A stretch of 64,000 nt of DNA. Source: Loripinus fragilis (taxonomy: Eukaryota > Mollusca > Bivalvia > Lucinida > Lucinidae). Made by a program: the position numbers and the translations under genes. This document shows, piece after piece, positions 1 through 48,564 of this stretch. Each line of letters begins with the position of its first letter. The first letter of the stretch is position 1. The stretch lies in the NCBI GenBank assembly GCA_964019695.1, contig OZ026515.1, positions 40,626,994 to 40,690,993 on the forward strand, written 5' to 3'. The notes below the pieces were generated by a model, which saw nothing but the letters and a program-made list of their open reading frames with translations, was not told the DNA's origin and made no database searches.

Positions 1-1370
1 GTAATATAGGAGATATGCTCCAAACAGGAAAAACCTAGAAATGAGGCCAGAAGTCAATGTCAAGGTCAAAGTGACCAAAATGGTATGCACCACTCTGCCA
101 TCCCAAGAGGAATCATCACCCCAAATTTGGGATTCCTACATCAAATAATTTAGGAGATATGCACCAGACTCAATGCAGTTTCTAAAAACTAGGTCAGAGG
201 TCAAGTTCAAAGTCACTGTGACCCGATTATGGTACACGGCACTTCGTCATCTCAAGATGCATCCACTTACCAAATTTGAGATTCCTTACCCAAATAATAT
301 AAGAGATATGTTCCAGACACGATTATTCTAAAAACTAGGTTAGGTCAAGGTCACAGTGACCGGAAAATGGTAAACAATACTCCGCCATCCCAAGATGCAT
401 CCACATCCTAGGATTAAGGCTCCGGCCGCAATAATTCTTAAAACTAGGTCAGAGGTCAAGGTCACAGTGACCCGAAAATGATGTGTGACACTCTGTCATC
501 CCAAGATACATTAACACACCAAATCTGGAATTCCTATCTCTAAGAATATAGGAGATATGCACCAGACTCATTGCAGTTTCTAGAAACTAGGTCAGAGGTC
601 AAGTTCAAGGTCACAGTGACCCAATTATGGTACGGGACACTTTGTCATCCCAAGATGCATCCTCACACCAAATTTGAGATTCCTGCCTCAAATAATATGA
701 GATATGCTCGGACACGATTATTCCAAAAACTAGGTCAGAGGTCAAGATCAAGGTCACAGTGACCCGAAAATGGTACGCGGCACTCCACAATCCCAAGATG
801 TATCCACATACCAAATTTAGAATTCCTACCTCAAAGAATGTAGGAGATAGGCTCAGGACATAATAATTCTTAAAACTAGGTCAGAGGTCAAGGTCATAAT
901 GACCTGAAAATGGTATGTGACACTCTGTCATCCTAAGATGCATTTACACACCAAATTTGGAATTCCTATCGAAAAGAATATAGGAGATATGCACCAGACT
1001 CAATGCAGTTTCTAGAAACTAAATCAGAGGTCAAGTTCAAGGTCACAGTGACCCAATTATGGTACGCAACACTTTGTCATCCCAAGATGCATCCACACAC
1101 CAAATTTGAAATTCCTACCTCAAATAATGTAAGGGATATACTCCGGACTAGATTATTCTAAAAACTAGGTCAGAGGTCAAGGTCACAGTGACCCGAAAAT
1201 GGTAGGCGACACTCCGCCATCCCAAGATGTATCCACATACCAAATTTGGAATCCCTACCTCAAAGAATCTAGGAGATATGCACCGGACACGAAGCGGGAC
1301 GGACAGACGGACACACAGACGGACTGTGCAATTACTATATGCCTCCCAAAGTTTCTTTGGGGGCATAAAA
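1..1370 (+). repeat. ~145-bp tandem array with palindromic GGTCACAGTGACC boxes and GAC-rich tail
   Basis: Degenerate units of roughly 140-150 bp repeat to about position 1280, with a superimposed ~400-430 bp order (the phrase around 'caatgcagtttcta' recurs near 173, 562 and 994). Each unit has an 'aggtcagaggtcaag' segment, usually followed by GGTCACAGTGACC, and a 'catcccaagatgcatcca' segment. The array ends in a GGACGGACAGACGGAC-type tail (1297-1326) and a short hairpin built on 'tgcctcc...gggggca' (1340-1366). Such tails are common at the end of dispersed tandem-repeat elements in bivalves. Short reading frames here are repeat-derived. It runs off the left edge of the window. Confidence 0.85.
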
Positions 1371-11649: not shown

Positions 11650-12259
11650 AAACTAAATATTTTTAGATTTATTGATGGTAGAGTTTCATTTTATTGCAAC
11701 AATTTAGATTTTCTACCACCTAAACCTAAATTTCACTTTTAGACACTTGAAGAAAGGGATCCAGGAATTCCATAGGAGGTTTGTTTTGGCACCCGCAGAT
11801 AAGGCTGCTAACAATGTTGTGGTCGTTTGAAAAAGATACTGTATCAACGCCCTAAAGCAAGAGCTTAGCACTGCAAAAACATAGGAGCATAACAGGCTTG
11901 ATGAGACGTCTATCGTTGATAGGCATCGATGCAATATGGCAGCTAAGTTTGGGTTGTTTGTTGATGAGGACCATAGCAAGCTTCCTACGTTATACTGGTT
12001 ACCTAAACTTCATAAACGGCCCTATAAGTCGCGTTGTATTGCTAATTCTAGTGCATGTACAACTACTGAGGTGTCTATTCTTTTGACTTCTTGCCTCACT
12101 GCGATTAAAACCATGTCATTAAATATTGCACAACAGTTTATGCAAGAAATGGTAAACAATCATTTTGGTCTATTAAAAATTCAGGTGAAATTCTAAATAA
12201 ATTGAAGTCGAGAGGTTTTCTAGCATCTGGTATTCGATTTCTCTACTCCCTATACTACA
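11650..12259 (+). pseudogene. Naiad reverse transcriptase, N-terminal part (frameshifted)
   Basis: Readable pieces in changing frames: FLPPKPKFHF (11710), ADKAANNVVVV (11798), KLPTLYWLPKLHKRPYKSRC (11980), and the motif A region DFSTPYTTLPHNLTKDKL, reached by a 1-nt shift near 12235. The motif A Asp is present. The same order is seen uninterrupted in the copy at 53141-53797. RT copies the element RNA at the nicked target. Confidence 0.8.
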
Positions 12260-13318
12260 TTGCCTCATAATCTAACCAAAGATAAACTAACAAAATTAAT
12301 TGAACACATATTTAACAGAGAGGGCTCACTTTATTTGGCTTGTAATGATAAAAATGCCTTTTTTACTTCTGAACAACCTAAACGATATAAATTGCGGTCA
12401 TGTCAGAAAATGTGTGATGCGCTCCATTATCTCTTGGACAATATATTTATAAGATTTGGCTCGAAATTATGTAGACAAATTGTAGGTCTTCCAATATGTA
12501 CTAATTGTGCTCCTCTTGTTGCAGATTTGTTTTTGTTTTGTTATGAGAGAGACTTTATGTTGCCTCTGTCAGACAATAATCAAACTGATATTATTGAAGC
12601 TTTTAACTCGACCTCCAGATATTTAGATGACTTACTTAATATTAATAATCCTTATTTTGAACAAATAGTAGATCAGATATATCCCACTGAACTTCAGTTG
12701 AATAAGGTGAATTCTTCTGATACTGAAGCTCCGATTTTGGACTTGAACTTGTCAATAACAAAAGGCATAGTTTCTTCTAAAATTTATGATAAACGGGATG
12801 ATTTTAATTTTGAAATAGTAAATTTCCCATTTCTTGATGTAGATGTTCCTCGTTCTCCTTCCTATAGTGTATATATTTCTCAGCTTATTCGTTTTGCTAG
12901 AGTGTGTTCTGATGTTGATGACTTCAACAACAGAAACTTATTTTTAACTGCCAAGTTATTAAAACAAGGTTATAGATATCATAAAATTCGAAAAGCATTT
13001 TCTAAATTCTACCACAGACATTCAGAGTTAATTGTTAAATACAACATTGGGTTAAAAACTCTCCTGCAACAAGGCATATCAGAACCTATATTTAATGGTG
13101 ATCTAGTTTATAAATTCAAAAGTATTGTTGGAAAACCTAATTTTAGTGATCAATTCAAAAAGATGGGAAAACCTTATATAAGGGTTGGATATAACTTGGA
13201 TATCATGCAACAGTCTGCATGCCCAGTATTAAACCCAATAACGGTTTATAGCTATGGTTTTCTCTTTAATTGCATGACGGTGGGTCAGGCCTCAGGCTCT
13301 ATGACAGCTCTGACGTAA
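12260..13318 (+). CDS. Naiad reverse transcriptase, C-terminal two thirds
   Basis: 352 open codons starting inside RT motif A (LPHNL). Visible motifs: the finger/palm segment CNDKNAFFTSEQ, GLPICTNCAPLVADLFLF (motif B region; Naiads usually have G-x-P-x-G-T-N, here Cys replaces one Gly), YLDDLLNI (catalytic motif C, residues ~123-130), then the thumb. The frame ends SMTALT-TAA. Close relatives in this window are 58953-59393 (same subfamily, plus strand) and 28015-28760 (subfamily B, minus). The listed start is only where the frame opens after an upstream frameshift, not a real initiator. It is a retroelement fragment, not a host gene. Confidence 0.85.
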   Translation: MPHNLTKDKLTKLIEHIFNREGSLYLACNDKNAFFTSEQPKRYKLRSCQKMCDALHYLLDNIFIRFGSKLCRQIVGLPICTNCAPLVADLFLFCYERDFMLPLSDNNQTDIIEAFNSTSRYLDDLLNINNPYFEQIVDQIYPTELQLNKVNSSDTEAPILDLNLSITKGIVSSKIYDKRDDFNFEIVNFPFLDVDVPRSPSYSVYISQLIRFARVCSDVDDFNNRNLFLTAKLLKQGYRYHKIRKAFSKFYHRHSELIVKYNIGLKTLLQQGISEPIFNGDLVYKFKSIVGKPNFSDQFKKMGKPYIRVGYNLDIMQQSACPVLNPITVYSYGFLFNCMTVGQASGSMTALT

Positions 13319-13560: not shown

Positions 13561-14009
13561 GTAAATTTTGGACTTTTCGGCCTGCAGAACTTGTTTTTGA
13601 ATACCCCATGTATTTTTTGACCACGTGCTTTTTGATTTTCAGCGTTGCATTGTAATTTTCGCCTCGTCGTGTATTTTTTTGACAGATGAAGTTAAGCTTG
13701 TTTTGCTTTATGAATTAAATGCTTGAAACCTGTGTTGTTCAATTTATTTATTGACCAATTTGCCATGCCACTGAATGTATGATTAAACATGTCCCCTGTA
13801 TTTTGAATGACTTTGTTGTTTGATTCATGCCCAACTATTGCTGTATTAAATTGTTTTACTATGCCATGAATGCCATGTCATTTTGAATGTATGCCATTGA
13901 TATATATATGCCATTGAATTGACTTGTTGTTTCAATTTTTCTTGCGCATTTTTCATGTATTTTTTGCCGTTTTTCGTGTATTTTTTGCCAATTTTTGACA
14001 ATATTCATC
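13561..14009 (+). other. Leader of the TatD-bearing LTR element
   Basis: T-rich, with repeated 'gtattttttg' / 'tgccattgaat' phrases resembling the 'ttcttgccatatt' phrases of the 3' spacer at 20770-21060. No LTR or primer-binding site recognised. Assignment to the element is by position and style. Confidence 0.4.
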
Positions 14010-14180
14010 ATGTCCATTAATGTGTACACTGCAATACAAACAGAACTACAATCTTTGCAAGGTATTGGCCCCAAGTCAGCCAGCGAGATTGTAGCACTAA
14101 GGAATGAGGTGCTGGCGGGTCAACGTGACCCAATATGCATTCTTGATTTGGCAGAGATACGCCTCCAGCCAGATACCTGA
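14010..14180 (+). CDS. Helix-hairpin-helix N-terminal segment of Gag
   Basis: From ATG at 14010: a short frame with LQSLQGIGPKSASEIVALRN, a typical helix-hairpin-helix (GIG-xxxA) unspecific DNA-binding motif, ending at TGA 14178. Downstream frames continue in other phases (FDEPIHIKETYTNIA-type text near 14270-14320), so the Gag N-terminus is probably frameshifted. HhH segments in front of Gag are not part of the classical Ty3/gypsy plan. It could help nucleic-acid binding in place of a zinc knuckle, which I do not see in this Gag. Confidence 0.55.
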   Translation: MSINVYTAIQTELQSLQGIGPKSASEIVALRNEVLAGQRDPICILDLAEIRLQPDT

Positions 14181-14339
14181 CAACAATACATCAATGATGG
14201 TCTATTTTCCATCACATATACACCACCATATCAGCCTCTTGCTGAAATATTTGAATCAGCTGATGATGGGTTTGGCAATTTTGATGAACCAATTCACATC
14301 AAAGAAACTTACACCAACATTGCACCAAAACAAACACTA

Positions 14340-15339
14340 ACACTTGAACAGGCAACAGGCAACACTAGCACAAAGTGACCAACCAGAACCTGGTCAATAC
14401 AAGACAATCAAACTGAATACACACAAATGGAACAAACACAACTGAACACATACAAATACAAGCCGTACAAACACAAACAAATCAAGCAGGACAAACAGAA
14501 TTGGAACAGGCACAGGCCATGGCACTACCACAAACACAAGGCAAAACCACAGAAAAATTATTTGCAGAGTCCATTGCAGTCATCTCACATGAGATGGATG
14601 GACTCGGCAAACAAATTTTTGCATTAGGCAACACACTAACACAAAAAATAACACAACTGGCAAACAGTGTTGTTGCCTTAGAGAATCAAAACACAGGCAT
14701 CAACACAAACATTAAACAAATTGTAGCAGAAAACACAAAAATACAAAAACAACTTACATGACATGAGGTATTTTTACAGGACATCAAAACAATTCTTCCA
14801 CCACCAACACCAATTGCAAGCAAACTCCCAATTTTCACAGAAGCAGCTAAACCCAAATACCAATTACAAGCACCCACAATGCAACAAGCAAAAATGCCAC
14901 AAACAACATTAACCCATTCTACACTTACACTCCCACAATGGACAAAACAACCTGGCACTCCAACATTAACAAATTCACCCATCACTTCACAACCAGGACC
15001 ATACACAATATATGGATCCACCCTACATATACACCATCTCAACCACAAACCTCAGCTACACCTGACATAAAGTAGACATCAAACCTAAGCATCCACAACA
15101 ATCATTGATTGACAACATTGCATCCCCCATACCAGTCTCATCAATCTACCAAACAAAACCACCCACAGAAACCAGCACCACGTCATCAGATACACACACT
15201 ACCACTGCAAAGCCAACTCAATAATTCTACGCACCAAAACCAAAAACAGATGACAAACAGACAGTTGACCGTAGCCGACCACAGACAAGACAGACGGACG
15301 CCTCGCGTGACCACTCCAGCCAGTCTACTAGGCCTCAAA
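14340..15339 (+). other. AC-rich low-complexity linker of Gag
   Basis: About 1 kb dominated by 'acaaac', 'acacaa' and 'caccac' with Gln/Thr/Pro/Asn-rich short frames in all phases; the best is 14501-14761 (heptad-like LGKQIFALGNTLTQKITQLA, possible coiled coil). Strong strand asymmetry (almost no G on the plus strand). It lies between the HhH segment and the Gag core and is probably a degraded disordered Gag region. Confidence 0.5.
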
Positions 15340-16530
15340 AGCTACAGCTTTTTTCGGGAGACCCCTCTGGTATATCCTGGCTATCTTTCATAATGACATT
15401 TAACAGGACATCCCAGAGGCTAGGGTGGTCTGAGGACAAAAGCTAGACAGACTGTATGACTGCCTAACCGATAAGGCCCTTGAATATGCCGCGTGTTCAG
15501 ACAACCGCGACAATTTTGCCGCGCTGAAAAGTGAACTTGCTTTGCAATTTGATTTAAAAGAGGAGCCAGTTGCTGCAAGACAGCAGCTTCACCTTGCAAA
15601 ACAAGGTGATGATGAAACGTTAGAGGCGTATTTGCAGCGCATTCTGGCTATCGCCATGGATGGCTATAAAGACGCCTCCACCGTTCTTTTGCAGCAAAGG
15701 CTACCGAGGCATTTTTGCGCGGTTGTAGGCATAAGGATGCTGCAACTTTGGTGATGAATGAGGCCCCACAAACTATCCATGTTGCCTGCAAAAGGATTAA
15801 AACCATGTTGGCAAATAAAAAAGCTATTGGGGGGAAGGTCCCTTTTTCTGAGAGAATATTCACGGTGCAGGAGGAGACGAGGGTCTCAAATATTGAGAAA
15901 AAGGTCGACGACCTTCTAAAATCTGTACATAGGCCATCATCTCCCCCTCGTCTTGCTTCACCGTCACCCCCGCGGTACTCATCGCGATATCAGGGTCAAA
16001 GCTGGCAGAGACCTAGATCTCCTATTTATTACCGTGGTCGTTCCCCAAATGGACATAAGAACCCCCAAAGGTTTTCATCATCCAGGCAAGGCCCGTACCC
16101 CTACAGAGGTGGCTACTCACCTGAGAGCTACCACCGTAGGAGTCCATCCAGAGATGGTAGGGACAGTGCAGGTATGGGTGGTAAGTACCCACCTGCTCAA
16201 TATCCTAGCAGCTCTGGATATAATCAAAGCCAATATGGTTCTAACCCAGATTACGGGAAAAGGTATTCCCATTCACCAAATTACAACCGTTCACCAAGTC
16301 CAAGGTACCGTCCTGCTAATCAGCATTACCCTCAGGGATACCCTCCAAGGTATTGTAATCCCCAGCCATATCCGTCAACACCCCTTGGCCCTATGGAAAT
16401 ACTGGAACTAGGCCAAGTGGTCCTGCATATGGATGGTCTTCTACTCCTCCACCAGACCACCGTAGGTCACAAAGTCCTGAAGCTCGGGTTCGTGCCGTCT
16501 AGGAGGAACAGGAGACCACCCAGGCTTTAA
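15340..16530 (+). pseudogene. Gag core with RS/Pro/Tyr-rich C-terminus
   Basis: Begins LQLFSGDPSGISWLSFIMTF (in a frame shifted at 15420), continues ALEYAACSDNRDNFAALKSEL and FDLKEEPVAARQQLHLAKQG (15542-15754), then shifts once near 15716 into 271 codons ending at 16530. The first part resembles Ty3/gypsy capsid (short helices, DxxxAYLQRI). The C-terminal part is a repetitive Arg-Ser-Pro-Tyr-Gly region (residues ~75-230) with no CCHC knuckle; basic RS repeats may serve RNA binding. Two or three frameshifts make it inactive. Confidence 0.7.
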
Positions 16531-16559
16531 ACTTGGACGGACTAGGCAAAACGGCAACC

Positions 16560-17074
16560 AACCCCTAGTCCAATCAAAATCGAGTCGTCATTGTGAGATT
16601 TTGGAAGTTTCTCTACCAAGTCATAGAAATTTAACTGCTTCAGTAGAGACACTAATCAATGGTATTCCAACCGAAGCTGTACTTGACACAGCAGCAATGG
16701 TTACACTGATAAGGGATGACTACATGACCCCTTTGTATAGTCAAGACCAATGAGGCCCCATTTGTGTTTTGACAGGGATTGGTTCAGACCCTTTACAGGG
16801 TTGCATAGTACATAATGTGCCAATCAATGTCGGCACACAAACTTTTTTGCATACTGTTTGTTTTGCCCCAGTTAGAGATGCTTGTCTCTTGGGTCTTGAT
16901 TTCTTGACTGCCACTTCAAGTGTCCTTGACCTTGGCAATGAAACTTTATCAATAGGGGAGGACATTGTTCCTGTCAGTGTGACCATGACTGCTGAAAGTA
17001 AATTTAGTAAAGTTAGTGTTGTACGGCGCACAGTTATTGAGCAATTTCAGTCGGTTATGTTACCGCTAAATTAG
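16560..17074 (+). pseudogene. Aspartic protease domain
   Basis: LDTAAMVTLIR at 16682-16714 matches the D-T/S-G/A active site of retropepsins (Ala in the Gly position). A TGA (16750) follows, then 16769-17074 reads CIVHNVPINVGTQTFLHTVC and LLGLDFLTATSSVLDLG, the flap and second conserved strand (hydrophobic-hydrophobic-G-x-D). It sits between Gag and RT as expected. Confidence 0.7.
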
Positions 17075-17196
17075 ACACCCCGTTTGACAGTCCGTTTATT
17101 TTTGAGGGCTGTCAAACTAACCATGCTCTCATGTCCCGTGTTTAGGGTGAACAAAAATCCTTTACCGTAAAAGTCGTTAACGACTCCAATTTTTTC

Positions 17197-18110
17197 GTGA
17201 CCTTTAAAAAAGACAAGAAAATAGGTCATGCCGAAGCAGCTACACAAGTTTCGTCTGAGCAGGCCAAGGTTCTTCAATCTTCAAATTTAGGTCCCAGAGA
17301 AAGGCCACAATCACAGGAGGCACAGGTTCAGACAGACAAGGAGGATACAGATATGCCTGCTCATTTAAAACAAATGTTCTTGGATAATAATTCGGAACTT
17401 TCTGATGAACAAAAACTTAAATTCAAGAACTTAATTTCCGAATTTGGGGATATCTTTTCCCAAGATGATTTCAATCTAGGCTGTCTAAAATCAGGAGTGG
17501 AACATAAGATTCTAACACTTAATGAAATTCCAGTTAATGAAAAATTTCGGCGAACTCCACTCCAATTCCAAAAGCAAGAGCAGGAGTATATTGAAAAACT
17601 CCTGAAGCAAGGCATAATTGAATCCTCAGTGTCTGAATGGTCTGCACCTCCAGTCCTTGTTAGGAAGAAAACGGGTGAGCTCAGGTATTGCATAGATTAT
17701 CGTGCATTAAATGCTAAAACCTATAAAGACAATTATAGTCTTCCCTTAATTGAAGACTGCCTGGACTCCTTGTACGGTAAGCGTGTGTTCTGCGTATTGG
17801 ATCTGTGTAGCGGCTACTTTCAAATTCCCCTATAAACTGGTTCACAGCATAAAACTTCTTTTAGTACTAGGTTTGGCAGTTACCAATGGACCCCTTTACC
17901 AATGGGTCCCCGCAACTTTTCAGCACAATGCAGCTGGTATTGCCTGGTTTGACCTGGGAAGAGGTCATTGTGTATTTGGACGATGTAATCGTTCTTGGGA
18001 CCGATTTTGATGATGCTCTGTTGGCTCTCAGAAAGTTTTTTACCTGCTTCTGTGAGCATGGTTTGAAGCTCAAACCCAAGAAATGCCATTTCTTCAAAGA
18101 GGAAGTGGAA
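17197..18110 (+). pseudogene. Reverse transcriptase
   Basis: First frame (17197-17835): LLKQGIIESSVSEWSAPPVL, KKTGELRYCIDYRALNAKT, and motif A CVLDLCSGYFQIPL with the catalytic Asp. A TAA at 17833 interrupts; text continues HKTSFSTRFGSYQWTPLPMG, then a frameshift leads to VIVYLDDVIVLG (17967-18000; YxDD intact) and LKLKPKKCHFFKEEVEFLG. One stop and one or two frameshifts, all catalytic Asp codons kept. The best family match by motif is the 412/mdg1-like branch of Ty3/gypsy. Confidence 0.85.
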
Positions 18111-18123
18111 TTTCTCGGAAAAC

Positions 18124-18975
18124 TTGTCAGCGGAAGTCCCCACCAATGTGAAAGAACTTCAGTCTTTTCTTGGTTTCATGAATTATCATAGGAATCATAT
18201 TAGGGATTTTGCTCAGATCTCAGCTGACCTATATGCCTTAATTCATGCTGAACATTTCAATTGGAAAATTAGGCACCAAGCCTGCTTCGAAAAACTTAAG
18301 GATTTAGCAATTTCTGCTCCTATGCTTTGTCATCCGTCACCTGACGGATTATTCATTTTGGACACTGATGCTAGTGGCACCCAAATAGGTGCCGCTCTTT
18401 CTCAAGTTCAAGACGGTGTAGTCAAGCCCATCTGCTTTGCCAGTCATGTTTTGTTAAATCAGCATCGCAATTATTGTACTACGCCCAAAGAATTACTAGC
18501 CGTCGTGAAATTCTGTCGCCAATTCAGACATTATTTGCTCGGACGGTTGTTCCTCATTTGCTTTGACCATAATTCCCTAGTTTGGCTGACCCGTTTTAAG
18601 CACCTAGAAGGTCAATTAGCAAGGTTTCTTGAGGAATTATCTCAATATAATTTCAAACTCATCCATAGGAAAGGTGCAGAACATGTTAATGCAGATGCTC
18701 TTAGTCGCATTAAGGACCTTTTAGAAAAATGTGACTGTTATGGAGCTGGTCAGAGGTTGGGCGATATCCCGTGTGGAGGTTGCCATTATTGTAAGCGGGC
18801 GCATAAGCAGTGGGCACGTTTCAATGATGACGTAGATGATGTTGTCCCTTTGGTAATTCGTAGTGTAGAGGCTGCGATGCCGGATCAGGCAATGCCAAAG
18901 CATCAAGTAGTCTCCAATTGGGTAGAAAATTTGTCTTCCATTGAACTCAGAAGGGCTCAAACTCATGATCTATAG
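18124..18975 (+). CDS. RNase H and connection domain
   Basis: Open for 283 codons: NYHRNHIRDFAQISADLYAL connection; then RNase H with LDTDASGTQIGAALS (first Asp), TTPKELLAVVKF (Glu), FDHNSLVWL (Asp) and NADALSRI (Asp), all four acidic catalytic positions present. The end (QTHDL-TAG) is a frameshift into the integrase frame. The Cys pair DIPCGGCHYCKRAH near residues 215-230 is typical of the tether before integrase in this group. Confidence 0.85.
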   Translation: MSAEVPTNVKELQSFLGFMNYHRNHIRDFAQISADLYALIHAEHFNWKIRHQACFEKLKDLAISAPMLCHPSPDGLFILDTDASGTQIGAALSQVQDGVVKPICFASHVLLNQHRNYCTTPKELLAVVKFCRQFRHYLLGRLFLICFDHNSLVWLTRFKHLEGQLARFLEELSQYNFKLIHRKGAEHVNADALSRIKDLLEKCDCYGAGQRLGDIPCGGCHYCKRAHKQWARFNDDVDDVVPLVIRSVEAAMPDQAMPKHQVVSNWVENLSSIELRRAQTHDL

Positions 18976-20498
18976 GGATTGTAATAAATTGGCTTGAGCA
19001 CTCTTACGAACCCACCGTCCGTGAACTGCAGCTCACTGGTCCTGAAACAAGGGCAATGTGGTTAACTAGGGATCAGTTGAAATTCAAGGACAGTGTTTTG
19101 TACTATTCTTGGACAAACGTTGTAGGCCGCTCTGATTCTTTAATTGTTCCTGAGGAATTCAGACCTCAAGTCTTATATTTCTGTCATGACTCAAAAGGTT
19201 TAGGACATTTAGGCCAAACCAAAACACTTGATAGGTTAAAACAGAGATTTTATTGGTACGGTATGTCCAAGGATAGTGACATATATGTCAAGCAATGTTC
19301 AAATTGCAATAAGAACAAGAAAGGCAATAGGCTACCTAGGAGTGCTCTGGAAATTTATCATGCAGGGTATCCTATGGAGCGTGTCCATTTCGATATCCTG
19401 GGTCCGATAAACCCAAGGAGCAAATCTGGCTCAGCTTACATACTTGTCATGGTGGACCAATTCACTAAATGGGTTGAGCTTGCACCTTTACCAGCCCAGA
19501 ATGCAGAATTAACGGCGGGGGCATTTCTCAAGCATTTTGTTTCGACGTTTGGCTGTCCACTTGAGGTACATACAGATCAAGGGCGCAATTTTAAAAGTTA
19601 TCTGTTTCAAGCTTTTTGTAAGGTCCTCGAGATTACTAAGACCCGGACCACACCCTACCACGCGGCTAGTAACGGCCAGGTGGAAGTTTTTAACAGAACT
19701 ATTCTGCAAATGATTAGAGCCTACGTCTCCCGGGGTGTTAAGGATTGGGACGAGCATCTGCTGGGGAGAGAGGTTATCCAGCCTATTGATTTAATGCTTG
19801 GGATACCTAGCCATACTCCCCAGGACCCGCCAACTTGGGTCGCAAATCTTACCAGTAATCTCTCCAAGATCCATAAACTGGTCAGGGAGAAGATTGGCGA
19901 AACTCAGCTGCGCCAAAAGAGAGATTACGACCTAAGGGTTTTTCAAAGGTCCTTTAAGCGAGGAGATATTGTTTACCTGAGAGACTCCTCTACCCAAATA
20001 GGCATAAGTTCCAAAGTGAGACCCCCCTGGATTGGTCCATATTTGGTCATAAGAGTTTGTCCACCAATCTATGCACTTCAAGGGAAACGTAGGGTGACTT
20101 TCGTGCATCATGATCGGATAAAGCCACGTAATGATTCTTCCTATCCCCTGTGGTTACAGAGAAAAAGACATTTATTGCTTGACACTCTGCCCACGGATGA
20201 TGGGGAGGATTGTGACATGGAGCCAGAGGAGCCCAGTCAGGATAATTTCCCAGATGGAGGATTGTTTGATCCCAAACAGACACTTCCTTATATGCTGGGG
20301 AATGATCCTGACATGACTTTGCATACTCTGTTTGGTGAGAGTATCCCTTCTGAGGAAAATGATATGGTAGAGAGTTCTGCCAATTTTTCTGACCCCTCTG
20401 GCGACTTAGATTCTGACTCTGATACCACCATCCTGTCAGAGCCCCAGACTACTAGGGCAGGTCGTAAAATTCAGTTACCTGCCCAATACAGAGACTGA
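18975..20498 (+). CDS. Integrase with GPY/F module
   Basis: The frame is readable from about 18975; the first ATG is 19056. HHCC zinc-binding: HDSKGLGHLG with CSNCNKNK. DDE: VHFDILGP, VHTDQGRN and NGQVEVFNRT, all three acids present. An in-frame deletion of about 25-30 residues seems to lie at DEHLLGREVIQPIDLML (direct join). The C-terminus has GPYLVI..VHHDRIKP, the GPY/F module. The Asp/Glu-rich tail (residues 390-480) ends at TGA 20496. The enzyme inserts the cDNA into host chromatin. Confidence 0.85.
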   Translation, partial: GIVINWLEHSYEPTVRELQLTGPETRAMWLTRDQLKFKDSVLYYSWTNVVGRSDSLIVPEEFRPQVLYFCHDSKGLGHLGQTKTLDRLKQRFYWYGMSKDSDIYVKQCSNCNKNKKGNRLPRSALEIYHAGYPMERVHFDILGPINPRSKSGSAYILVMVDQFTKWVELAPLPAQNAELTAGAFLKHFVSTFGCPLEVHTDQGRNFKSYLFQAFCKVLEITKTRTTPYHAASNGQVEVFNRTILQMIRAYVSRGVKDWDEHLLGREVIQPIDLMLGIPSHTPQDPPTWVANLTSNLSKIHKLVREKIGETQLRQKRDYDLRVFQRSFKRGDIVYLRDSSTQIGISSKVRPPWIGPYLVIRVCPPIYALQGKRRVTFVHHDRIKPRNDSSYPLWLQRKRHLLLDTLPTDDGEDCDMEPEEPSQDNFPDGGLFDPKQTLPYMLGNDPDMTLHTLFGESIPSEENDMVESSANFSDPSGDLDSDSDTTILSEPQTTRAGRKIQLPAQYRD

Positions 20499-21640
20499 TG
20501 GAGTATACAGCTTTGACGTCAGTTTTTGTTATTGTCCTTGCTAGCTCTTTGAAACTGCGGGACTCTAGCAAATGCTGGTGTTATTTTTTCTGTAGTCTCT
20601 GTGTCGACCCATTCATTCTGATTTTTTCCTGTAAGTTGACATCAGTCTTGGTATTGGTCATAATTAGCTCTTTGGAACTATATGACCCTTGCTAATTCTG
20701 ATGTTATATTTCCTGGAACCTACAAACAGCAACATTTTCTGTCATTCAGCCATATATTCTGTCATACTATCCTGCTATATATATATATTCTGCCATATTT
20801 TCTTGTCATATTCATTTTCTTGCCATACGCATTTTCTTGCCATATTATGACACAGGTACTTGCCATATATTGGTGTCATAATTTCTGTCGTGGCATATTC
20901 CAACATGCCATATATTCTACTTTTCCATGGCATATTCTGCCATTTTTCTTGACACAATTTCTTGCCAAAATGGCTTACCATATGTTCTGACATTTTCTTG
21001 TCATGTTTTTTGACAATTTTCTTGCCAATTCTGCCTTTTGTCGTCGTAATTTCTTGCCATACTTATGACGTATTTGCTTTCTGCATATTGTAGCTGTATT
21101 TTGACAGCAGTTCCTGTAATCGTCCTTACTAGCTCTTTGAAACTGTGGACATTTAACAGATGCTGGTGTCATATGTGTATCCATATTGTTTATGGACAAT
21201 TACAACATAGGACTCTGTACTAGTTTTAACGCCGTGACTGTAGCAGGTTCCGATGTTGCAATAAATTATCCTCCTCCTGGTTCATGTATCAACCAATCCT
21301 TAGCATCTGTACTGGCGATGGTTCATGATAGCTCCTTGAAACTTGCATGCTGTCGTCGGGCCTGGTGTTAGGGATCTCATTCCATAAATTATCACCTTCA
21401 TAATTCATTCATTAAACAATTCTTGACATCTGTTCTGGCGATGGTTCATGCTAGCTCCTTGAAACTGCTGCTGTCGTCAGGCCTGGTGTCCAGGATATCA
21501 TTTCATTATCATCCTCACATAATTCATTTCTCATTCCATTCTCGACATCTGTTTGGCGATGGTTCATGATAGCTCTTTGAAACTTGCATGCTGTCGTTAG
21601 ACATGGTGTCGGGATAACATTTCATTATTTTTCATAAAAT
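20499..21640 (+). repeat. Spacer with TAGCTCTTTGAAACTG boxes and 120-bp tandem units
   Basis: The box TAGCTCTTTGAAACTG or a 1-2 base variant occurs at 20542, 20665, 21130, 21329, 21452 and 21570, and again at 25100 beyond the TatD frame. From 21240 the last three boxes lie in ~120-bp tandem units (GGCGATGGTTCATG, box, TGCTGTCGT, CTGGTGT). Between 20700 and 21060 a T-rich stretch repeats 'ttcttgccatat'. No ORF of interest. Probably regulatory or structural sequence of the LTR element. Confidence 0.75.
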
Positions 21641-22228
21641 ACTGAAGCTTGTTCTGGTGGTTTTCAATGCTAACCATTGACTAACACTAGATGAGGTTTC
21701 AAAGGGTTCCATTCTCACATATAGCATATTCACCACATTTCATCTTCAAAAATTCTAGCATTCAGATAGACTGCATATTGCATAATATATAAAGGTATAT
21801 ATATTATGCTGGCATGTCAAAAATATATATGCTGCATTACAAAGGAATTGTAATGCTTATTTATTAGCACTATAGAGCATAGTTAGAGCTTCAAATTAAA
21901 TATTAATTTTTTACAATTAAATATTAAATTGCTACATTTACCGAATCGGTATTTTCTGTGTATACAGGTCCATTAAAAAAGTTATTTCACTACAGAAAAA
22001 TTCCAAAAGTTTTTTCACATTTTTACTATACATGAATGGTCTATGTTTTACAATATATGTAATTAATTATCATGCTTTTTTGTTTCTATAAATCATATCA
22101 ACATATAATCAGACATTATTTGTATATAAATATCAAATGCATTCCAATGAAAAACACAACAACATACTTTAAATAAATTCCAATGAAAACACAATAACAG
22201 TGTACGCATACATCATAAAGTCAGCATA

Positions 22229-22905
22229 TCATTGCATCTCCCTTTGCTTTAATAAGCAAAGCAGTTCTCCTTGGCTTTGCATTATAAAGTTCTTCCAGGA
22301 CGTTTGGTCTGCACTATACCACGCTTCACATACTCGCTTCAACATCTCTTTTTTACATGACATTTGGTTACCAACCTCTTTCTTCATTATATTCCAAACA
22401 TTCTCTATGGAATTCACGTCAATTGAATTCCCTGGCCATTCCAGAATGGGTACTCGTTTACATTCTATGAATGTTCTAGCACTTTTAGAGTTGTGGCATG
22501 GCTCGAGATCATGCTTGAAGATATATCCCTTCTGTGGGAACACAATACATTAACATGTCATTTCAATATCATGAATAATATCACTCTGGTATTTTGCACT
22601 ATTCTTGTTACCATTCACTTTTTTCAAAAGAGACATGCTTCTGCTGCTAATGGCTCCCCAGACTTGCTCACACTTACTGGCGGATTTACAGTAGTCTGAA
22701 TATACTTATCATGATATTTCTCATTCTGTTTGCGCCAAACACGACTATGGCGTCGATTGTTATGACTGTAAAATACAGACTCGTGTGAATGCATTGTGTT
22801 CCCACAGAAGGGATATATATTTATGCATGGTAATGCACCATGCCATAACTCTAAAATACTTAGAACATTCTCAGAATGTAACATAATTCGGTTCTGAAAA
22901 AGGGC
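22229..22905 (-). pseudogene. Tc1-like transposase fragment (left half)
   Basis: Minus-strand pieces: SHNNRRHSRVWRKQNEKYHD and QTTVNPPVSVS (22690-22790), then FKHDLEPCHNSKSARTF (second Asp of the DDE triad) and SIDVNSIENVWNIMKKE (Glu). The segment between them is frameshifted and the first Asp is not clear. The N-terminal DNA-binding domain is missing. Inactive. Confidence 0.75.
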
Positions 22906-23132
22906 CAATGAATTCGCCAGAAATTAATTCAATAGAGAACGTTTGGAATATAATGAATAAGAAAGAGATTGGTAACCAACTGCTGTGTTTAAAAGAAGAG
23001 ATTTGGGAGCGAGTATGTGAAGCGTGTTACAGTGTAACACCAAACGTCCTGGAAGAACTTTACAATTCAATGCCAAGGAGAATTGCAGATCTTATAAAGC
23101 AAGGGGAGATGCAACGAATACTGACTTTATGA
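22788..23132 (+). pseudogene. Tc1-like transposase fragment (right half)
   Basis: Plus-strand CIVFPQKGYIFMHGNAPCHN (22795-22853), a TGA at ~22895, then EINSIENVWNIMNKKEIGNQ with the catalytic Glu, ending QGEMQRILTL at 23129. It mirrors the left half but differs in sequence by enough to be a separate copy. Confidence 0.75.
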
Positions 23133-23512
23133 TGTAGTCGTACAGGTATGTTATTGTGTTTTCATTGAAATGTATTCTAGTATGTTGTAGTGTTTTCAAT
23201 GGAATGTATTTAAGTAGGGTGTTGTTTTTTTATTGGAATGTATTTAATATTTATATACAAATGCTGTCTGCTTATACGTTGATACGATTTATAGAAATAA
23301 AATGCCACAAGAATTGAATTACATGCATGGCAAAACGTGAACCATTAATGTATAAAAATGTGAAAAAAACTTTTGAAATATTGCGTAGTGAAATAACTTT
23401 TTTAATGGACCTGTACTACCAGTTCAATGTAACTGATGTATATGTGAGGAGTACTGATGGGTGATTCATTATAAGTTTCTGTACTGTGGGAGAATGGAGC
23501 CCATGCTTAAGG

Positions 23513-23530
23513 CCCTTCCTTCTTTTGTAG
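23513..23530 (+). promoter_or_regulatory. Splice-acceptor-like site before the TatD frame
   Basis: A pyrimidine run CCCTTCCTTCTTTTGTAG ends exactly at the base before ATG 23531. A donor-like GGAAG|GTAAGAG lies in the 3' LTR at 26661-26672, so a 5' LTR copy would carry one too. Inference: the downstream frame is expressed from a spliced subgenomic mRNA. Confidence 0.45.
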
Positions 23531-24034
23531 ATGCCGCCAAAAGTCAAGAGGGCGCGTCGCATGTTATATGACGTTTGTTCACTATGTGGGGCCAACTCTC
23601 CCCTCATGTATAAGCACCATCTTCGGGTTCATATGCCTTGGTATATGAAACCTGCCACTTCATGGGTGGACTGCCACATGTCCGCTGGGAACGAGCGGGA
23701 GCTCCAGAATATTCATGGGCAGCACCGGTTGTTCTCTGGGGAATATCTGTTACAGGCCTGGTTCTTGCTAATGAATGGGATGTTCCTATTCCTTAGCCAA
23801 GGACTAGGACTGGGACCCCCCATTGAATTGCTGGGCTGTGCGGCTGTTAGGGAGCTGACTACTCGTCCCCTGCGGTTCTCTGAAGAAAAATTATCCTTCC
23901 TCAGAGAATATGACAGAAGAGCAGGTCTGGATCCCCTTTCTGATGATGAATATTTGATATTGCCCCCAACTCGACTTATTGTTCTGATGCACCCAGCAGT
24001 TACATCTAGGCTACTGGCCCATCTGGATCCTTAG
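23531..24034 (+). CDS. C2H2 zinc-finger protein, N-terminal part of a zinc finger-TatD frame
   Basis: 167 codons. A basic start (PPKVKRARR) precedes CSLCGANSPLMYKHHLRVHM, a C-x2-C-x10-H-x3-H finger (residues 16-34), then PWYMKP and a degenerate second Cys/His patch (WVDCHMS..HGQH, 45-70). The remainder is helical with no recognised domain. It ends at TAG 24032-24034, but the same frame continues uninterrupted for 302 codons into the TatD domain. ATG 23531 is chosen because it follows the splice-acceptor-like site and no in-frame ATG upstream is useful. Likely a nucleic-acid-binding module of the element's extra protein. Confidence 0.6.
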   Translation: MPPKVKRARRMLYDVCSLCGANSPLMYKHHLRVHMPWYMKPATSWVDCHMSAGNERELQNIHGQHRLFSGEYLLQAWFLLMNGMFLFLSQGLGLGPPIELLGCAAVRELTTRPLRFSEEKLSFLREYDRRAGLDPLSDDEYLILPPTRLIVLMHPAVTSRLLAHLDP

Positions 24035-24040
24035 ACAATA

Positions 24041-24940
24041 TTGCCCTTCCGACATCATCAACAGTACTCTTTGGCAAATTGCTCCAGTCCTCCTGTAGGG
24101 TATCCAAGTGTAAAGAGGGCTATAATTGACACCCATTTTCATTTGGATAGCTTTTCCAGTCGTCAAGGTCGTTCTTTGTCAGATCTGGAGAGCTCGATAT
24201 ATAAACCCTTATTAATTTCCGTCCCATTTGCTATAGCAAACTACGTCTTTCCAGATAAATGGTCTCGTCTTAGTGAGCATGTGAGGGCTGACCCAAGGTT
24301 GCGAATAACTCTTGGTGTCCATCCTCATATGATCACTGAGACTCAGGTAACTTCTTTGTTTGACAGACTGGAGGAATTATTGGGTCAGTACCCAGAAGCC
24401 GTTGGAGTGGGTGAGGTTGGCCTGGACCTGACTACGGCCTGCCGTCAAAATTGCCGTGACTGTGCGGGTTGCTGTAGTCGGAAATTAAAGGGACAGCGCC
24501 GATTCCTGCGGCTTGCCTTCCAGCTTGCGAAGCAACTCGACAAAGTTCTGATTTTGCATGTGCGCGATAGGAATACTGGTGAGGCGGCTGCAGAAGTCCT
24601 CGATCTACTTCGCAGCATGGATATGACAAACCATAAGATCCACCGCCATTGTTTTGTTGGGGGAGAGGAGGAGTACATTCAGTGGAGTATTTCCTTGCCC
24701 AACTGTTATTTTAGCATATCACCTGTGACAGTTAGAAACCCTGGAACGATGCGTGCTTTGAGCTCCTTGGATAATCGCAAGCGATTGTTGCTCGAGACGG
24801 ACTCTGCATATTTGGCAAACGACCCCTGGTGCGTTAATGAAGTCGCTGGGGAGGCAGCTCGGTCATTGAATATGACAGTATCTGAATTTGTTGGAGTCTG
24901 TAACAAAAATGCTGTCAGGTTACATAGCCTACCTTGGTAG
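24041..24940 (+). CDS. TatD-type metallonuclease (TATDN2-like) encoded in the LTR element
   Basis: A (beta/alpha)8 metallohydrolase of the TatD family: IDTHFHLD (His pair, residues ~32/34), GVGEVGLD (Glu ~125), LILHVRD (His ~173), HRHCFVGG (His ~203) and LLETDSAYL (Asp ~254). All expected metal ligands are present in order and spacing, so the fold looks catalytically intact. A Cys-rich insert CRQNCRDCAGCCSRK follows the Glu strand and may bind zinc. TatD proteins are 3'-5' DNases/phosphodiesterases. The true start is upstream: the frame joins the zinc-finger segment across one TAG. The frame ends at TAG 24938. It lies between integrase and the polypurine tract, so it belongs to the retroelement rather than being a host gene, although a nested host-derived copy cannot be excluded. 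Confidence 0.8.
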   Translation: MPFRHHQQYSLANCSSPPVGYPSVKRAIIDTHFHLDSFSSRQGRSLSDLESSIYKPLLISVPFAIANYVFPDKWSRLSEHVRADPRLRITLGVHPHMITETQVTSLFDRLEELLGQYPEAVGVGEVGLDLTTACRQNCRDCAGCCSRKLKGQRRFLRLAFQLAKQLDKVLILHVRDRNTGEAAAEVLDLLRSMDMTNHKIHRHCFVGGEEEYIQWSISLPNCYFSISPVTVRNPGTMRALSSLDNRKRLLLETDSAYLANDPWCVNEVAGEAARSLNMTVSEFVGVCNKNAVRLHSLPW

Positions 24941-26439
<1,499 letters not shown>

Positions 26440-26440
<1 letters not shown>

Positions 26441-26454
26441 GAGAGGGGGGAGAA
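26440..26454 (+). promoter_or_regulatory. Polypurine tract
   Basis: GAGAGGGGGGAGAA immediately precedes the TGTTGTACCCC start of the 3' LTR. It is the usual plus-strand primer site. Confidence 0.7.
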
Positions 26455-27013
26455 TGTTGTACCCCTGGACTATCGTTATGTTGACAAGGCGGCTGGATTA
26501 CTACTACTAACAACATATGGACAGTACCTGTACCTGTGACCAGTCGCCGTTGACAACCACCCGTGCGTGAAGCTACGTGGTGCAACACCGATAGCTGACA
26601 AACGTTCTCTTATCAACCTGACAACCGAAGAAACTAGACGTGCTTTTACACAGTACTTCAGGAAGGTAAGAGCACTTTCATAACATTTCGATTAATAGCG
26701 GATGAAACGTCATCGCGACGTTACACCGTTGTTAAGGACGATAACGTCGTTAGTATAGAGGAGAAGTCAAGAAGAGGATACTACATAAAGATAGATGCGA
26801 GGACATAAAGACAGATGTGATCAAGTGCGATGGAATAGAAAGGATAGAAGTTACCAAAAGACAGATTAGGTTCAAGTATAGTTACTTAGGTAGAAATAAT
26901 CAAAGGAACTTAGTAAAATAACATAATTCTCCTTTAACGATATCAATTCTAGCATAAACTCTGTTAATTACAATTTGTATATAAACAATTAAACTTGTGT
27001 TTTATGTGTTACA
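26455..27013 (+). repeat. 3' LTR of the TatD-bearing element (inferred)
   Basis: Starts TGTTGTACCCC right after the polypurine tract and ends GTGTTACA, giving TGT...ACA ends and about 559 bp. It contains a donor-like GTAAGAG at 26666. No second copy is present in the window, so the right boundary is inferred from the terminal dinucleotides only. Confidence 0.55.
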
Positions 27014-28222: not shown

Positions 28223-28758
28223 TCACAATACCAAATTATAGTATCGGCGATAAAATTTAGAAAATGTTTTACGGGGTTTATGATACCGATAGCGTTGTTT
28301 AAGAAGTTTCCGAGTTAACATTTTTTTGTGAGTGTTGAAGTCAGCAACATTGCCAGATGTTCTAGCAAATGGAATGAGTTGAGAGATGTAGACTCCATAG
28401 GAAGTAGATCGAGGAACATCACAATCTAAAAATAGGAAATTGACAATTTCAAAATCAAAATCGTCACGTTTATTGCAAATTTTGGTCGAAACAATAATAT
28501 TATAAATGAACAAATACACGTCTAAAACACGGCTTCGGTATAAGAGGTTTTTGTTTTATTACGTTGGAGCTCTGAAGGGTATATTTGACTAACCATATTT
28601 TCAAAATAAACATCATTAATGTTTAAAATATCACCCAAATATCTGAATATAGTGTTAAAAGCGTCAATAATATCAGCCTGCTTATCATCAGAAAGAGACA
28701 CCAAAAAGTCCCTCTCATAAAAAAAACAAGAATAAAACGGCAACCGAGGGAGCACACT
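28223..28758 (-). pseudogene. Naiad B reverse transcriptase remnant
   Basis: Two frames (28522-28755 and 28223-28519) covering the palm end and thumb. YLGD replaces YLDD. A short frame break lies between LQRNKTKTSYTEAVF and the IVSTKICNKRDDF segment. Sequence is clearly diverged from subfamily A (for example FARTSGNVADFNTHKK against FARVCSDVDDFNNRN). Confidence 0.8.
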
Positions 28759-43869: not shown

Positions 43870-44069
43870 TGTTGTATATTCTGCATATAGACTCTGCAAC
43901 ATGATACGATCTTGATAGGGGCTCAGCCTGTAGTATAAAACTACCTTGCTGCTTCAGCTGTCCGCTTATTCTCTTAGTTATCATCTCTCTTGTAGTTCGT
44001 ATAGCTTTACTAATAAATATATTAGCAGCATACATGCGTGTTCATTTCTACCTGTCACAGGATAAAATA
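43870..44069 (+). repeat. 5' LTR
   Basis: TGTTGTATATTCTGC...CAGGATAAAATA, 200 bp. It differs from the 3' LTR at three single positions in its first half. The AATAAATATATTAG phrase includes an AATAAA polyadenylation signal. Confidence 0.95.
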
Positions 44070-44087
44070 TGGTGTCAGAAGTGACTT
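44070..44087 (+). promoter_or_regulatory. Primer-binding site
   Basis: TGGTGTCAGAAGTGAC begins directly at the end of the 5' LTR. TGG at the start is typical for a tRNA 3'-CCA complement. The tRNA species was not determined. Confidence 0.7.
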
Positions 44088-44177
44088 ACAGGAATATTGC
44101 TTAACTGAATTAAAGAGCGTGACAATTTACACCTATTTGACTTGAAATAATATTAGTGAAATTTAAATTAACAAAAA

Positions 44178-45353
44178 ATGGCTAGTTTTCAAGTTACCCC
44201 TCCAGATCAGTTTGACTTTAAAAAACCAGCAGATTTTGAGAAATGGTTTGTGAGGTTTGAACGGTTCAAAACTGCTAGTGGTCCTTCAGAAAAATCTCAA
44301 GAACAGCAAGTAAATGCCTTGGTTTATTGTATGGGGAAAGAAGCAGATGACGTTTTAAAATCGTTTGGATTATCAGATGAGCAGCAAAAAGTTTATACAA
44401 CAGTCACAGGAAAATATGTGAACTATTTCAATGTTCGAAGAAATACAATATTTGAACGTGCAAGGTTTAATTTAAGAAAACAAGAAGAGGGGGAGTCCGT
44501 GGATCAGTTTATCACATCATTGTACACGCTAGCAGAACATTGTGATTATGGTGAATTAAAGGACCAGTTAATCCGGGACAGAATTGTTGTTGGACTCAGG
44601 GACGCTAAAATTTCTGAGAAATTACAGCTGGATCCTGCTCTGACGCTTGAGAAAGCTGTCACACAAGCCAGGCAGAAAGAAGCAGTCCACGAGCAGCAGT
44701 CTATAGTAAGAAGTTATGTTCTGTCGGAAAATAAGATTGACTCAGTTAAATTCCGACAGAGACACAGCCAGAACACACAGAGAAGACACACAAGGGATAA
44801 GCCAAAGACACAAAATAGCGACAAGCCTAGATGTACCCGTTGCGGAGCCGTACCATCGCATAGTCGGAGTAAGTGCCCAGCTCGGGATGCAAAGTGCCGA
44901 GGTTGCGGTATAAAAGGACACTGGGTTCGATTTTGTCTTTCAAAGAAGGTGCACGAGGTCGACGATCGAGATGGGGAATCCGACGATGAATCCGATGCAT
45001 ACCTTGGGACAATCGACAGTGAAAGTGCAGTGCTAAGTTCAATCAGTTCAAATTCAGATGAACCATGGATTATTGACCTCAAGGTAGGACAAGGTTTTAT
45101 CAGATTTAAAATCGATTGTGGTGCCGATGTTACGGTCATATCAGACGATATGTACCTTAAAATTGGCAAGTTACCTTTAGTAAAAAGCTCTAAAAGGTTG
45201 TACGGTCCTGGTAATGTACCACTGAAGGTCATGGGTTCGTTTACTGCAAAGCTCGAGACTAATGCAAGCTCAGCGGTCGAGCGTATCTACGTAAAAGGGG
45301 CAAGATCGATGCCTGTTAGGTCGACCAGCTATAACCAAGCTAGATTTGCTTGA
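44178..45353 (+). CDS. Gag-protease
   Basis: 391 codons. PPDQFDFKKPADFEKWFVRF at the start and the following helices (to ~190) fit the capsid of Mag-type elements. Two zinc knuckles: CTRCGAVPSHSRSKC (C-x2-C-x5-H-x4-C) and CRGCGIKGHWVRFC (C-x2-C-x4-H-x4-C), residues ~219-255. Protease active site IDCGADVTVIS near residue 312 (Cys in place of Ser/Thr before Gly). The frame ends at TGA 45351. The last ~12 codons are out of phase: the neighbouring frame continues the conserved protease-RT linker, so a single-base shift lies near 45310. Confidence 0.9.
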   Translation: MASFQVTPPDQFDFKKPADFEKWFVRFERFKTASGPSEKSQEQQVNALVYCMGKEADDVLKSFGLSDEQQKVYTTVTGKYVNYFNVRRNTIFERARFNLRKQEEGESVDQFITSLYTLAEHCDYGELKDQLIRDRIVVGLRDAKISEKLQLDPALTLEKAVTQARQKEAVHEQQSIVRSYVLSENKIDSVKFRQRHSQNTQRRHTRDKPKTQNSDKPRCTRCGAVPSHSRSKCPARDAKCRGCGIKGHWVRFCLSKKVHEVDDRDGESDDESDAYLGTIDSESAVLSSISSNSDEPWIIDLKVGQGFIRFKIDCGADVTVISDDMYLKIGKLPLVKSSKRLYGPGNVPLKVMGSFTAKLETNASSAVERIYVKGARSMPVRSTSYNQARFA

Positions 45354-48168: not shown

Positions 48169-48352
48169 CTTGATAAGGGACCACAAAATAATCAGTGTTG
48201 CTTGTTTTATCTGTAACCAGAAACTGTGATGATAAACAGACAATTCAGTCGTGGGAATTAATGAATTAAAGATTGAACACTCAATAAACTGTTTTACGGT
48301 TACGGTTTTATTAATGAACTGTTGCATACCGTAAACTCTAAAACATTGGGCT

Positions 48353-48364
48353 TTGAAAGGGGGG
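48353..48364 (+). promoter_or_regulatory. Polypurine tract
   Basis: GAAAGGGGGG immediately before the 3' LTR. Confidence 0.8.
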
Positions 48365-48564
48365 TGTTGTATATTCTGCATATAGACTCTGCAACATGAT
48401 ACGATCTTGATAAGGGCTCAGCCTGTAGTATAAAACTACCTGGCTGCTTCTGCTGTCCGCTTATTCTCTTAGTTATCATCTCTCTTGTAGTTCGTATAGC
48501 TTTACTAATAAATATATTAGCAGCATACATGCGTGTTCATTTCTACCTGTCACAGGATAAAATA
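48365..48564 (+). repeat. 3' LTR
   Basis: 200 bp, matching the 5' LTR except three single-base differences. Followed by target duplication GTAAC. Confidence 0.95.

What the first reader, a model, noticed from the sequence alone, without database searches (positions are those of the whole stretch)
18975..24940. LTR retrotransposon with a TatD-family nuclease as an extra 3' gene
Seen: integrase ends at 20498 and, before the polypurine tract and LTR at 26440-27013, a frame encodes a TatD metallonuclease with all expected ligands (THFH, GEVGLD, LHVRD, HCF, ETD) behind a C2H2 finger. Known: TatD/TATDN proteins are cellular 3'-5' DNases; classical Ty3/gypsy elements have no such gene. Inference: the element acquired a host nuclease, perhaps to process cDNA ends or counter host sensing. 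I recall very many TATDN2-like gene models in bivalve genomes, which this could explain; I know of no formal description of the element.
Basis: partly seen in the sequence, partly recalled or inferred. Interest (0 to 1): 0.88.

Follow-up and report, generated by a model that had tools for sequence, protein, structure and literature searches.

The report
Retrotransposon carrying its own TatD nuclease
A group of animal "jumping genes" related to retroviruses carries, where retroviruses keep their envelope gene, a conserved enzyme of the TatD nuclease family behind zinc fingers; this may explain many 'TATDN2-like genes' in such genomes and suggests that these elements use a nuclease of their own.

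Summary
The window carries a decayed Ty3/gypsy element (13561-26685): gag, RT, RNase H, integrase, then a gene of two C2H2-like fingers, a helical region and a TatD domain, then polypurine tract and LTR. This copy is dead: no 5' LTR, broken pol, a nested Tc1-like insertion, one stop inside the TatD gene. Its LTR is 26455-26685, shorter than stated.

In the same 1.99-Gb genome 69 of 82 related integrase loci have TatD 1.6-3.6 kb downstream on the same strand, none on the other. Nine of 13 adjacent LTR pairs enclose a TatD; a second family has a near-identical LTR pair around it. Integrase and TatD diverged together over ten families. Recent family-B copies show purifying selection on TatD as on integrase. 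A splice-acceptor-like site lies 0-10 nt before the ATG in 5 of 6 families and a donor in both LTRs examined, suggesting env-like expression. Indirect links appear in other genomes. Nine literature searches listed no description. The enzyme's role is inferred.

The parts
13561..14009 (+). remaining 5' leader of the element; left border is a truncation junction (5' LTR and PBS missing)
   Evidence: blastn to L023 3993-6789, 92%; sequences read
14010..14180 (+). start of Gag frame with a helix-hairpin-helix motif, ended by a stop
   Evidence: HHH_3 E 1.1e-5, just under the Pfam cut-off; 91% in L023; 62% in gene model P0053
15434..15754 (+). Gag core fragment
   Evidence: Retrotrans_gag E 8.9e-4, under the cut-off; 90% and 88% identical in L023 and L025
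17146..17835 (+). reverse transcriptase, N-terminal part (frame broken)
   Evidence: RVT_1 E 1.4e-4, under the cut-off; 94% in L025
18067..18975 (+). RT end / RNase H
   Evidence: PF17919 1.9e-28, PF17917 4.1e-28
18969..20498 (+). integrase (zinc-binding and catalytic core)
   Evidence: PF17921 1.2e-19, PF00665 1.5e-14
20512..21628 (+). non-coding spacer with diverged repeats (motif TAGCTCTTTGAAACT, about 120-bp units)
   Evidence: also in L025 and L028
21965..23413 (.). later nested Tc1/mariner-like inverted insertion, not part of the element
   Evidence: inverted arms; absent from L023, L025 and L028; type named from recall
23514..23530 (+). putative splice acceptor (pyrimidine tract + TAG) ending directly before the ATG
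   Evidence: same place in families A and B, 1-10 nt before the ATG in three others, weaker in a sixth
23531..24034 (+). N-terminal half of the TatD gene: two C2H2-like finger sets and a helical region; ends in an in-frame stop in this copy
   Evidence: alignment of 8 copies; helices and finger-like parts in the model of relative P0001; no Pfam match
24035..24940 (+). TatD nuclease domain
   Evidence: PF01026 E 1.5e-36; PDB relatives YcfH, TATDN3; fold of relative P0001
26442..26454 (+). polypurine tract
   Evidence: read; same position in L023 and in a family-B copy
26455..26685 (+). 3' LTR (231 bp, TGTT..AACA), with a splice-donor-like GTAAG at 26666
   Evidence: queried as 26456-26685: 41 matches in the genome, 9 of 13 adjacent pairs enclosing a listed TatD; donor

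Best explanation
This is a decayed member of an old, multi-family lineage of Ty3/gypsy LTR retrotransposons whose third gene, in the env position between integrase and the 3' LTR, encodes a two-finger C2H2-like, helical, TatD metallonuclease. SHOWN: gene order, linkage, LTR enclosure, co-divergence with integrase, purifying selection in family B, retained ligand residues; predicted TatD fold in a close relative. LIKELY: the protein is translated from a spliced subgenomic mRNA that joins a donor in the LTR to an acceptor directly before its ATG, as retroviral env is. INFERRED: the protein is an active metal-dependent nuclease that acts for the element on its own nucleic acids, trimming 3' ends or RNA strands of replication or integration intermediates, the fingers supplying nucleic-acid binding.
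Against: No enzyme assay, transcript or protein was available; splicing and activity are predictions. The window copy itself is dead. The one family-B copy checked has no perfect target-site duplication. In 6 of 20 fetched TatD loci no RT or integrase was found in 8 kb upstream; three of these look like stand-alone genes. In family A the dN/dS bootstrap intervals of the three pairs without the window copy include 1. The permutation test takes no account of shared ancestry. The comparison with an unrelated integrase lineage did not complete in 11 tries. Shared contig length is indirect, and no fused pol-TatD model was seen among 120 listed of 733. Family 881 lacks a strong acceptor.
Confidence: 0.72

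Rival explanations
1. Counter-defence: the nuclease degrades cytosolic cDNA, RNA:DNA hybrids or small-RNA precursors so that host sensing or silencing fails, rather than serving reverse transcription itself.
For: An accessory gene in the env position fits a host-interaction role. The cellular relative TATDN2 is reported to resolve R-loops and to be expressed in germ cells (abstract of PMC12709183; passages of PMC12754012).
Against: No data on host targets here. Divergence tracks integrase and dN/dS is low in family B, with no sign of an arms race in the few pairs tested.
Confidence: 0.2
2. Passenger: the gene is carried without benefit to the element, like a captured host fragment.
For: Enzymatic extra ORFs of LTR elements can lack a known role (passages of PMC5408684). 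Family-A dN/dS is 0.32-0.63 on few changes, with wide intervals.
Against: Kept over ten families with integrases down to about 40% identity; purifying selection in recent family-B copies; ligands kept; acceptor kept in 5 of 6 families.
Confidence: 0.05
3. Two or more independent captures of a TATDN2-like gene, in superclade I (A, B, 470, 486) and superclade II (795, 881, 879 and others), instead of one ancestral capture.
For: TatD identity between the superclades is only 23-32%. The group of element TatDs has 83/99 support, but no host TATDN2 was in the tree.
Against: Same position, finger-like, helical and TatD layout in both, acceptor habit in both, and integrases that are themselves related.
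Confidence: 0.25
4. Stand-alone finger-TatD genes (L017, L019, L020; P0054, P0060) are domesticated element genes, or the reverse, the source from which the element took its gene.
For: Same layout, no pol in 8 kb upstream, relatives in other genomes.
Against: Direction is not resolved; L019 sits about 240 bp behind a 2217-aa frame with a weak DUF6589 match, so it may belong to another mobile element.
Confidence: 0.3
5. Chance: a host TATDN2 gene or retrocopy next to a dead retroelement.
For: The window copy alone could not exclude it, as it lacks a 5' LTR.
Against: Linkage, LTR enclosure and co-divergence.
Confidence: 0.01

Closest known systems
Bdelloid-rotifer LTR retrotransposons with ORF3 DEDDy exonuclease or GDSL esterase (Juno, Vesta; PMC5408684, passages read)
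   Same: LTR retrotransposon with an enzymatic, non-envelope ORF3; one type is a DEDDy-type exonuclease
   Different: DEDDy (RNase D-like) family, not TatD; other hosts; 'TatD' occurs 0 times in that paper's main text
Orchid Ty3/gypsy elements with an m6A demethylase domain (PMC9289625, search listing only)
   Same: Ty3/gypsy element that gained a conserved enzymatic domain
   Different: Different enzyme, plants; ORF position not read
Retroviral / errantiviral env genes (recalled)
   Same: Position between integrase and 3' LTR; inferred spliced subgenomic mRNA
   Different: Encodes a protein with the TatD domain and predicted fold, not a known envelope protein
Cellular TatD nucleases: TATDN1, TATDN2, TATDN3, YcfH, TatD
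   Same: PF01026, ligands, fold; HRHCF signature recalled as TATDN2-like
   Different: C2H2-like double finger and helical region in front; encoded by a retrotransposon; TATDN2 itself not compared here

Membership tests
Ty3/gypsy (Metaviridae) LTR retrotransposon | domain order RT, RNase H, integrase on one strand | tested here: met
Ty3/gypsy (Metaviridae) LTR retrotransposon | pair of LTRs with TG..CA ends | tested here: met
   met in relatives; the window copy has only the 3' LTR
Ty3/gypsy (Metaviridae) LTR retrotransposon | PBS after the 5' LTR and polypurine tract before the 3' LTR | tested here: inconclusive
   PPT seen; PBS-like TGG.. after the LTR in relatives, not matched to a tRNA
Ty3/gypsy (Metaviridae) LTR retrotransposon | 4-6 bp target-site duplication | tested here: inconclusive
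   one family-B copy read, no perfect repeat
Ty3/gypsy (Metaviridae) LTR retrotransposon | placement in an RT tree with named clades | not tested
   no named reference elements at hand
TatD nuclease family | PF01026 over the curated cut-off | tested here: met
   126.6 bits against 27
TatD nuclease family | metal ligands HxH, E, H, H, D (list recalled) | tested here: met
   all in the window copy; invariant or at least 90% conserved in 23 and 38 proteins; in 18 elements the motif patterns missed 4, of which 3 proved present in a variant form and one lies outside the compared piece (L026)
TatD nuclease family | TatD fold | tested here: met
TatD nuclease family | nuclease activity | not testable with these tools
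   needs an assay
Host TATDN2 gene (considered) | spliced host gene, single locus, no LTRs | tested here: not met
   unbroken frames spanning fingers and TatD in relatives, 150 scored matches in the genome, LTR pairs around it
env gene of retrovirus/errantivirus (considered) | spliced subgenomic mRNA from a leader/LTR donor to an acceptor before ORF3 | tested here: inconclusive
   splice-like sites at the right places; no RNA data
env gene of retrovirus/errantivirus (considered) | membrane fusion glycoprotein | tested here: inconclusive
   the predicted fold is TatD, Pfam finds only TatD in relatives P0004 and P0060; no transmembrane predictor run
bdelloid DEDDy ORF3 (considered) | DEDDy exonuclease domain | tested here: not met
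   Pfam finds TatD only

The most novel reading that the evidence does not exclude
A whole lineage of animal Ty3/gypsy elements has used a dedicated zinc-finger TatD nuclease, expressed env-style by splicing, since before its families split. It acts on the element's cDNA or RNA:DNA intermediates or on host sensing, and it repeatedly seeds genomes with 'TATDN2-like' genes, some of which (the stand-alone finger-TatD genes) have been domesticated.
Probability: 0.35. Interest if true: 0.86.

Novelty: new variant of a known kind. Interest (0 to 1): 0.74.

Why it matters
Accessory enzymes in LTR retrotransposons are described as uncommon and their uses are mostly unknown (abstract of PMC9289625 in the listing; passages of PMC5408684). 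A nuclease kept over ten families, with co-divergence, selection and conserved splice-like sites, is a good system in which to ask why a retroelement needs a nuclease besides RNase H and integrase. It also warns that TATDN2-like gene counts in such genomes may be inflated by mobile elements; a giant-squid Hox cluster, for example, is drawn with a TATDN2 model among pogo and ZMYM models (figure legend in PMC6962438).

Tried and rejected
Host gene by chance next to a dead element: rejected. Scans of GTDB genome contigs and IMG/VR for linked relatives: nothing useful; one 25% Spirochaetales protein. No fused pol-TatD model among the 120 listed of 733 integrase hits. Idea that L019's neighbour (weak DUF6589) marks a second carrier class: none of 59 DUF6589 places in the genome was L019, and the nearest to a listed TatD is 225 kb away, so left open. 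N-terminal half folded alone: pLDDT 46.7, not usable; in the full-length model of P0001 that half is 80-98. Viral fold library: one match under E 0.001, an uncharacterized Yasminevirus protein. Literature: nine searches on TATDN2 or TatD with retrotransposon, integrase, bivalve, transposable element, mollusc/transposon, gypsy, R-loop or expanded genome, and on LTR retrotransposons of molluscs with additional ORFs; the titles and abstract starts listed showed no such element, but three lists were capped (20 of 82, 27 and 780). I read passages of five listed papers; 'TatD' occurs 0 times in the main text of four (PMC6238403, PMC5408684, PMC12440569, PMC8220671) and twice in one legend of the fifth (PMC6962438). 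Only open-licence papers are held; Repbase was not available. Not obtained because the tool did not complete: control with another integrase lineage, genome-wide LTR-B list, host species by COI, TatD protein search of the genome.
Full report
WHAT IS IN THE WINDOW. Frames and Pfam give, all on the + strand: a Gag start with a helix-hairpin-helix motif (14010-14180, HHH_3 E 1.1e-5, under the cut-off), a weak gag core (15434-15754), RT (17146-17835, weak), RNase H (18067-18975), integrase (18969-20498), a zinc-finger frame (23531-24034, no Pfam match) and the TatD frame (24035-24940, PF01026 E 1.5e-36). The last two are one reading frame split by a stop. Downstream lie a polypurine tract and an LTR start. 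No second LTR copy was found in the window.

EXTENT AND STATE OF THIS COPY. Blastn against relatives shows element similarity from 13561 to 26688, with a gap at 21965-23413 filled by a Tc1-like inverted insertion. The LTR occurs once in L022 and once in L023, the two ends of one element on C5, and in both it is followed by the same PBS-like TGG.. sequence. This fixes the window LTR as 26455-26685. The copy lacks the 5' LTR, the PBS and about 400 bp of leader, has a broken pol, a stop in the TatD gene and a lost residue in the second finger set. It is a fossil.

LINKAGE IN THE SAME GENOME. A search of the window's assembly (1.99 Gb) with PF01026 scored 150 of 304 candidates and listed 150 matches. 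The 20 best were fetched with 8 kb upstream. In 14 of 20 an RT, RNase H or integrase of this type lies upstream on the same strand. The six without are L017, L019, L020 (stand-alone-looking genes), L023 (its fetched TatD is preceded by a family-A Gag segment; it also holds an A-type TatD with LTR), L024 and L027. An integrase search (84 of 4165 candidates scored, 160 matches, 150 rows listed) merged to 82 loci: 69 have a listed TatD 1592-3630 bp downstream on the same strand, none within 6 kb on the opposite strand. Conversely 69 of the 150 listed TatDs have a listed integrase upstream; both lists were cut, so these are lower bounds. The 13 integrase loci without a listed TatD were not examined further. 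A control with another integrase lineage did not complete; the one other Ty3 element in the window (43870-48564) shows no frame of 150 aa or more between its integrase frame and its 3' LTR, which is a single case.

LTR ENCLOSURE. The window LTR (queried as 26456-26685) has 41 matches. Of 13 adjacent same-strand pairs within 20 kb, 9 enclose a listed TatD, 8 of these also an integrase, and 7 span 12.1-14.1 kb. Two further pairs hold integrase without a listed TatD and two hold neither. In family B, one copy has LTRs with 3 differences in 256 compared bases, PBS-like and PPT-like sequences, and gag-pol-TatD inside. No perfect target-site duplication was seen there.

CO-DIVERGENCE AND SELECTION. 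Nineteen elements were entered and eighteen compared, in ten families by my grouping (L016 dropped because its integrase piece was under 150 aa; L011 and L023 not entered). Over ten representatives the identity matrices of integrase and TatD correlate at r = 0.956, with 0 of 5000 permutations as high; the test takes no account of shared ancestry. Well-supported forks agree: the split between superclades I and II, the A copies, 795 with L014, and L021/L022/L026; poorly supported forks differ. In recent family-B copies TatD has dN/dS 0.07-0.20 in six pairs of four copies; integrase 0.04-0.18 in three pairs of three copies (left out for stops: L012 and L013 for TatD, L010 and L013 for integrase; L016, and for integrase L011, not entered). 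Family A gives 0.32-0.63 on few changes; the intervals of the three pairs without the decayed window copy include 1. Between families dS is near or at saturation and dN/dS is about 0.16-0.36 where defined; three pairs had infinite dS.

EXPRESSION. In 14 of 15 copies, and 5 of 6 families, a pyrimidine-rich tract (at least 11 of 15) plus YAG ends 0-10 nt before the ATG; such sites occur at 2.3 per kb on either strand (0.030 per 13-nt window). The sixth family (881) has a CAG 3 nt before its ATG with a weaker tract. Both LTRs examined (A and B) hold AGGTAAG, which occurs at 0.027 per kb. I read this as a donor in the LTR and an acceptor before the TatD gene, as for retroviral env. No RNA data were available.

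OTHER GENOMES. 94 related proteins were found, among them P0001 (93% identical, 79 members) and three from Candidatus Thiodiazotropha MAGs, which I take to be host contamination. P0053 joins a Gag start (62% identical to the window's over 53 residues) to a TatD end (69% over 115 residues). This is indirect but fits linkage elsewhere. None of the 120 carries a TatD Pfam domain.

ORIGIN. A tree with bacterial TatDs and TATDN3 groups element TatDs and stand-alone finger-TatD genes with 83/99 support, with some long branches and two rows that I had labelled bacterial inside the group; host TATDN2 was not available. Single or double capture, and the direction between host and element, stay open.

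MECHANISM AND PLACE AMONG KNOWN THINGS. Best reading: an env-position accessory nuclease that works on the element's own nucleic acids. Counter-defence is the main rival. TATDN2 is reported to act on R-loops and in germ cells (abstract of PMC12709183; passages of PMC12754012), which makes RNA:DNA hybrids a plausible substrate. The nearest described case that I found is the bdelloid DEDDy ORF3 (passages of PMC5408684), a different nuclease family. I therefore rate it a new variant of a known kind: LTR elements with captured enzymatic ORFs.

Noticed in passing
window 43870-48564: A second Ty3/gypsy element with 200-bp LTRs 98.5% identical and no frame of 150 aa or more between its integrase frame and 3' LTR.
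   Followed up: partly
window 12224-13318; copies near 28251-28756 and 58983-59761: Dispersed frame that looks, from recall, like a Penelope-type or related RT; no Pfam match at E 1.
   Followed up: no
L019 435-7088 and 7326-8489: A 2217-aa frame (weak DUF6589, Cys-rich end) about 240 bp upstream of a stand-alone-type finger-TatD gene.
   Followed up: partly
C1:133170648-133194996 of G000: Two family-A elements in tandem, apparently sharing the middle LTR, each with its TatD; on C5 a 3' LTR is likewise followed by another family-A Gag segment (L023).
   Followed up: partly
window 20512-21628 and L009 6415-6865: Repeats in the integrase-TatD spacer in two families; function unknown.
   Followed up: no
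window 14010-14180; L015 443-2335; P0053: Gag of this element type begins with a helix-hairpin-helix-like motif (by eye in L015), which I do not recall from other Gag proteins.
   Followed up: partly
P0142: A gypsy pol gene model that also carries a macro domain (PF01661), perhaps another captured enzyme.
   Followed up: no
window 1-1292 and 56390-56792: Tandem repeat arrays.
   Followed up: no
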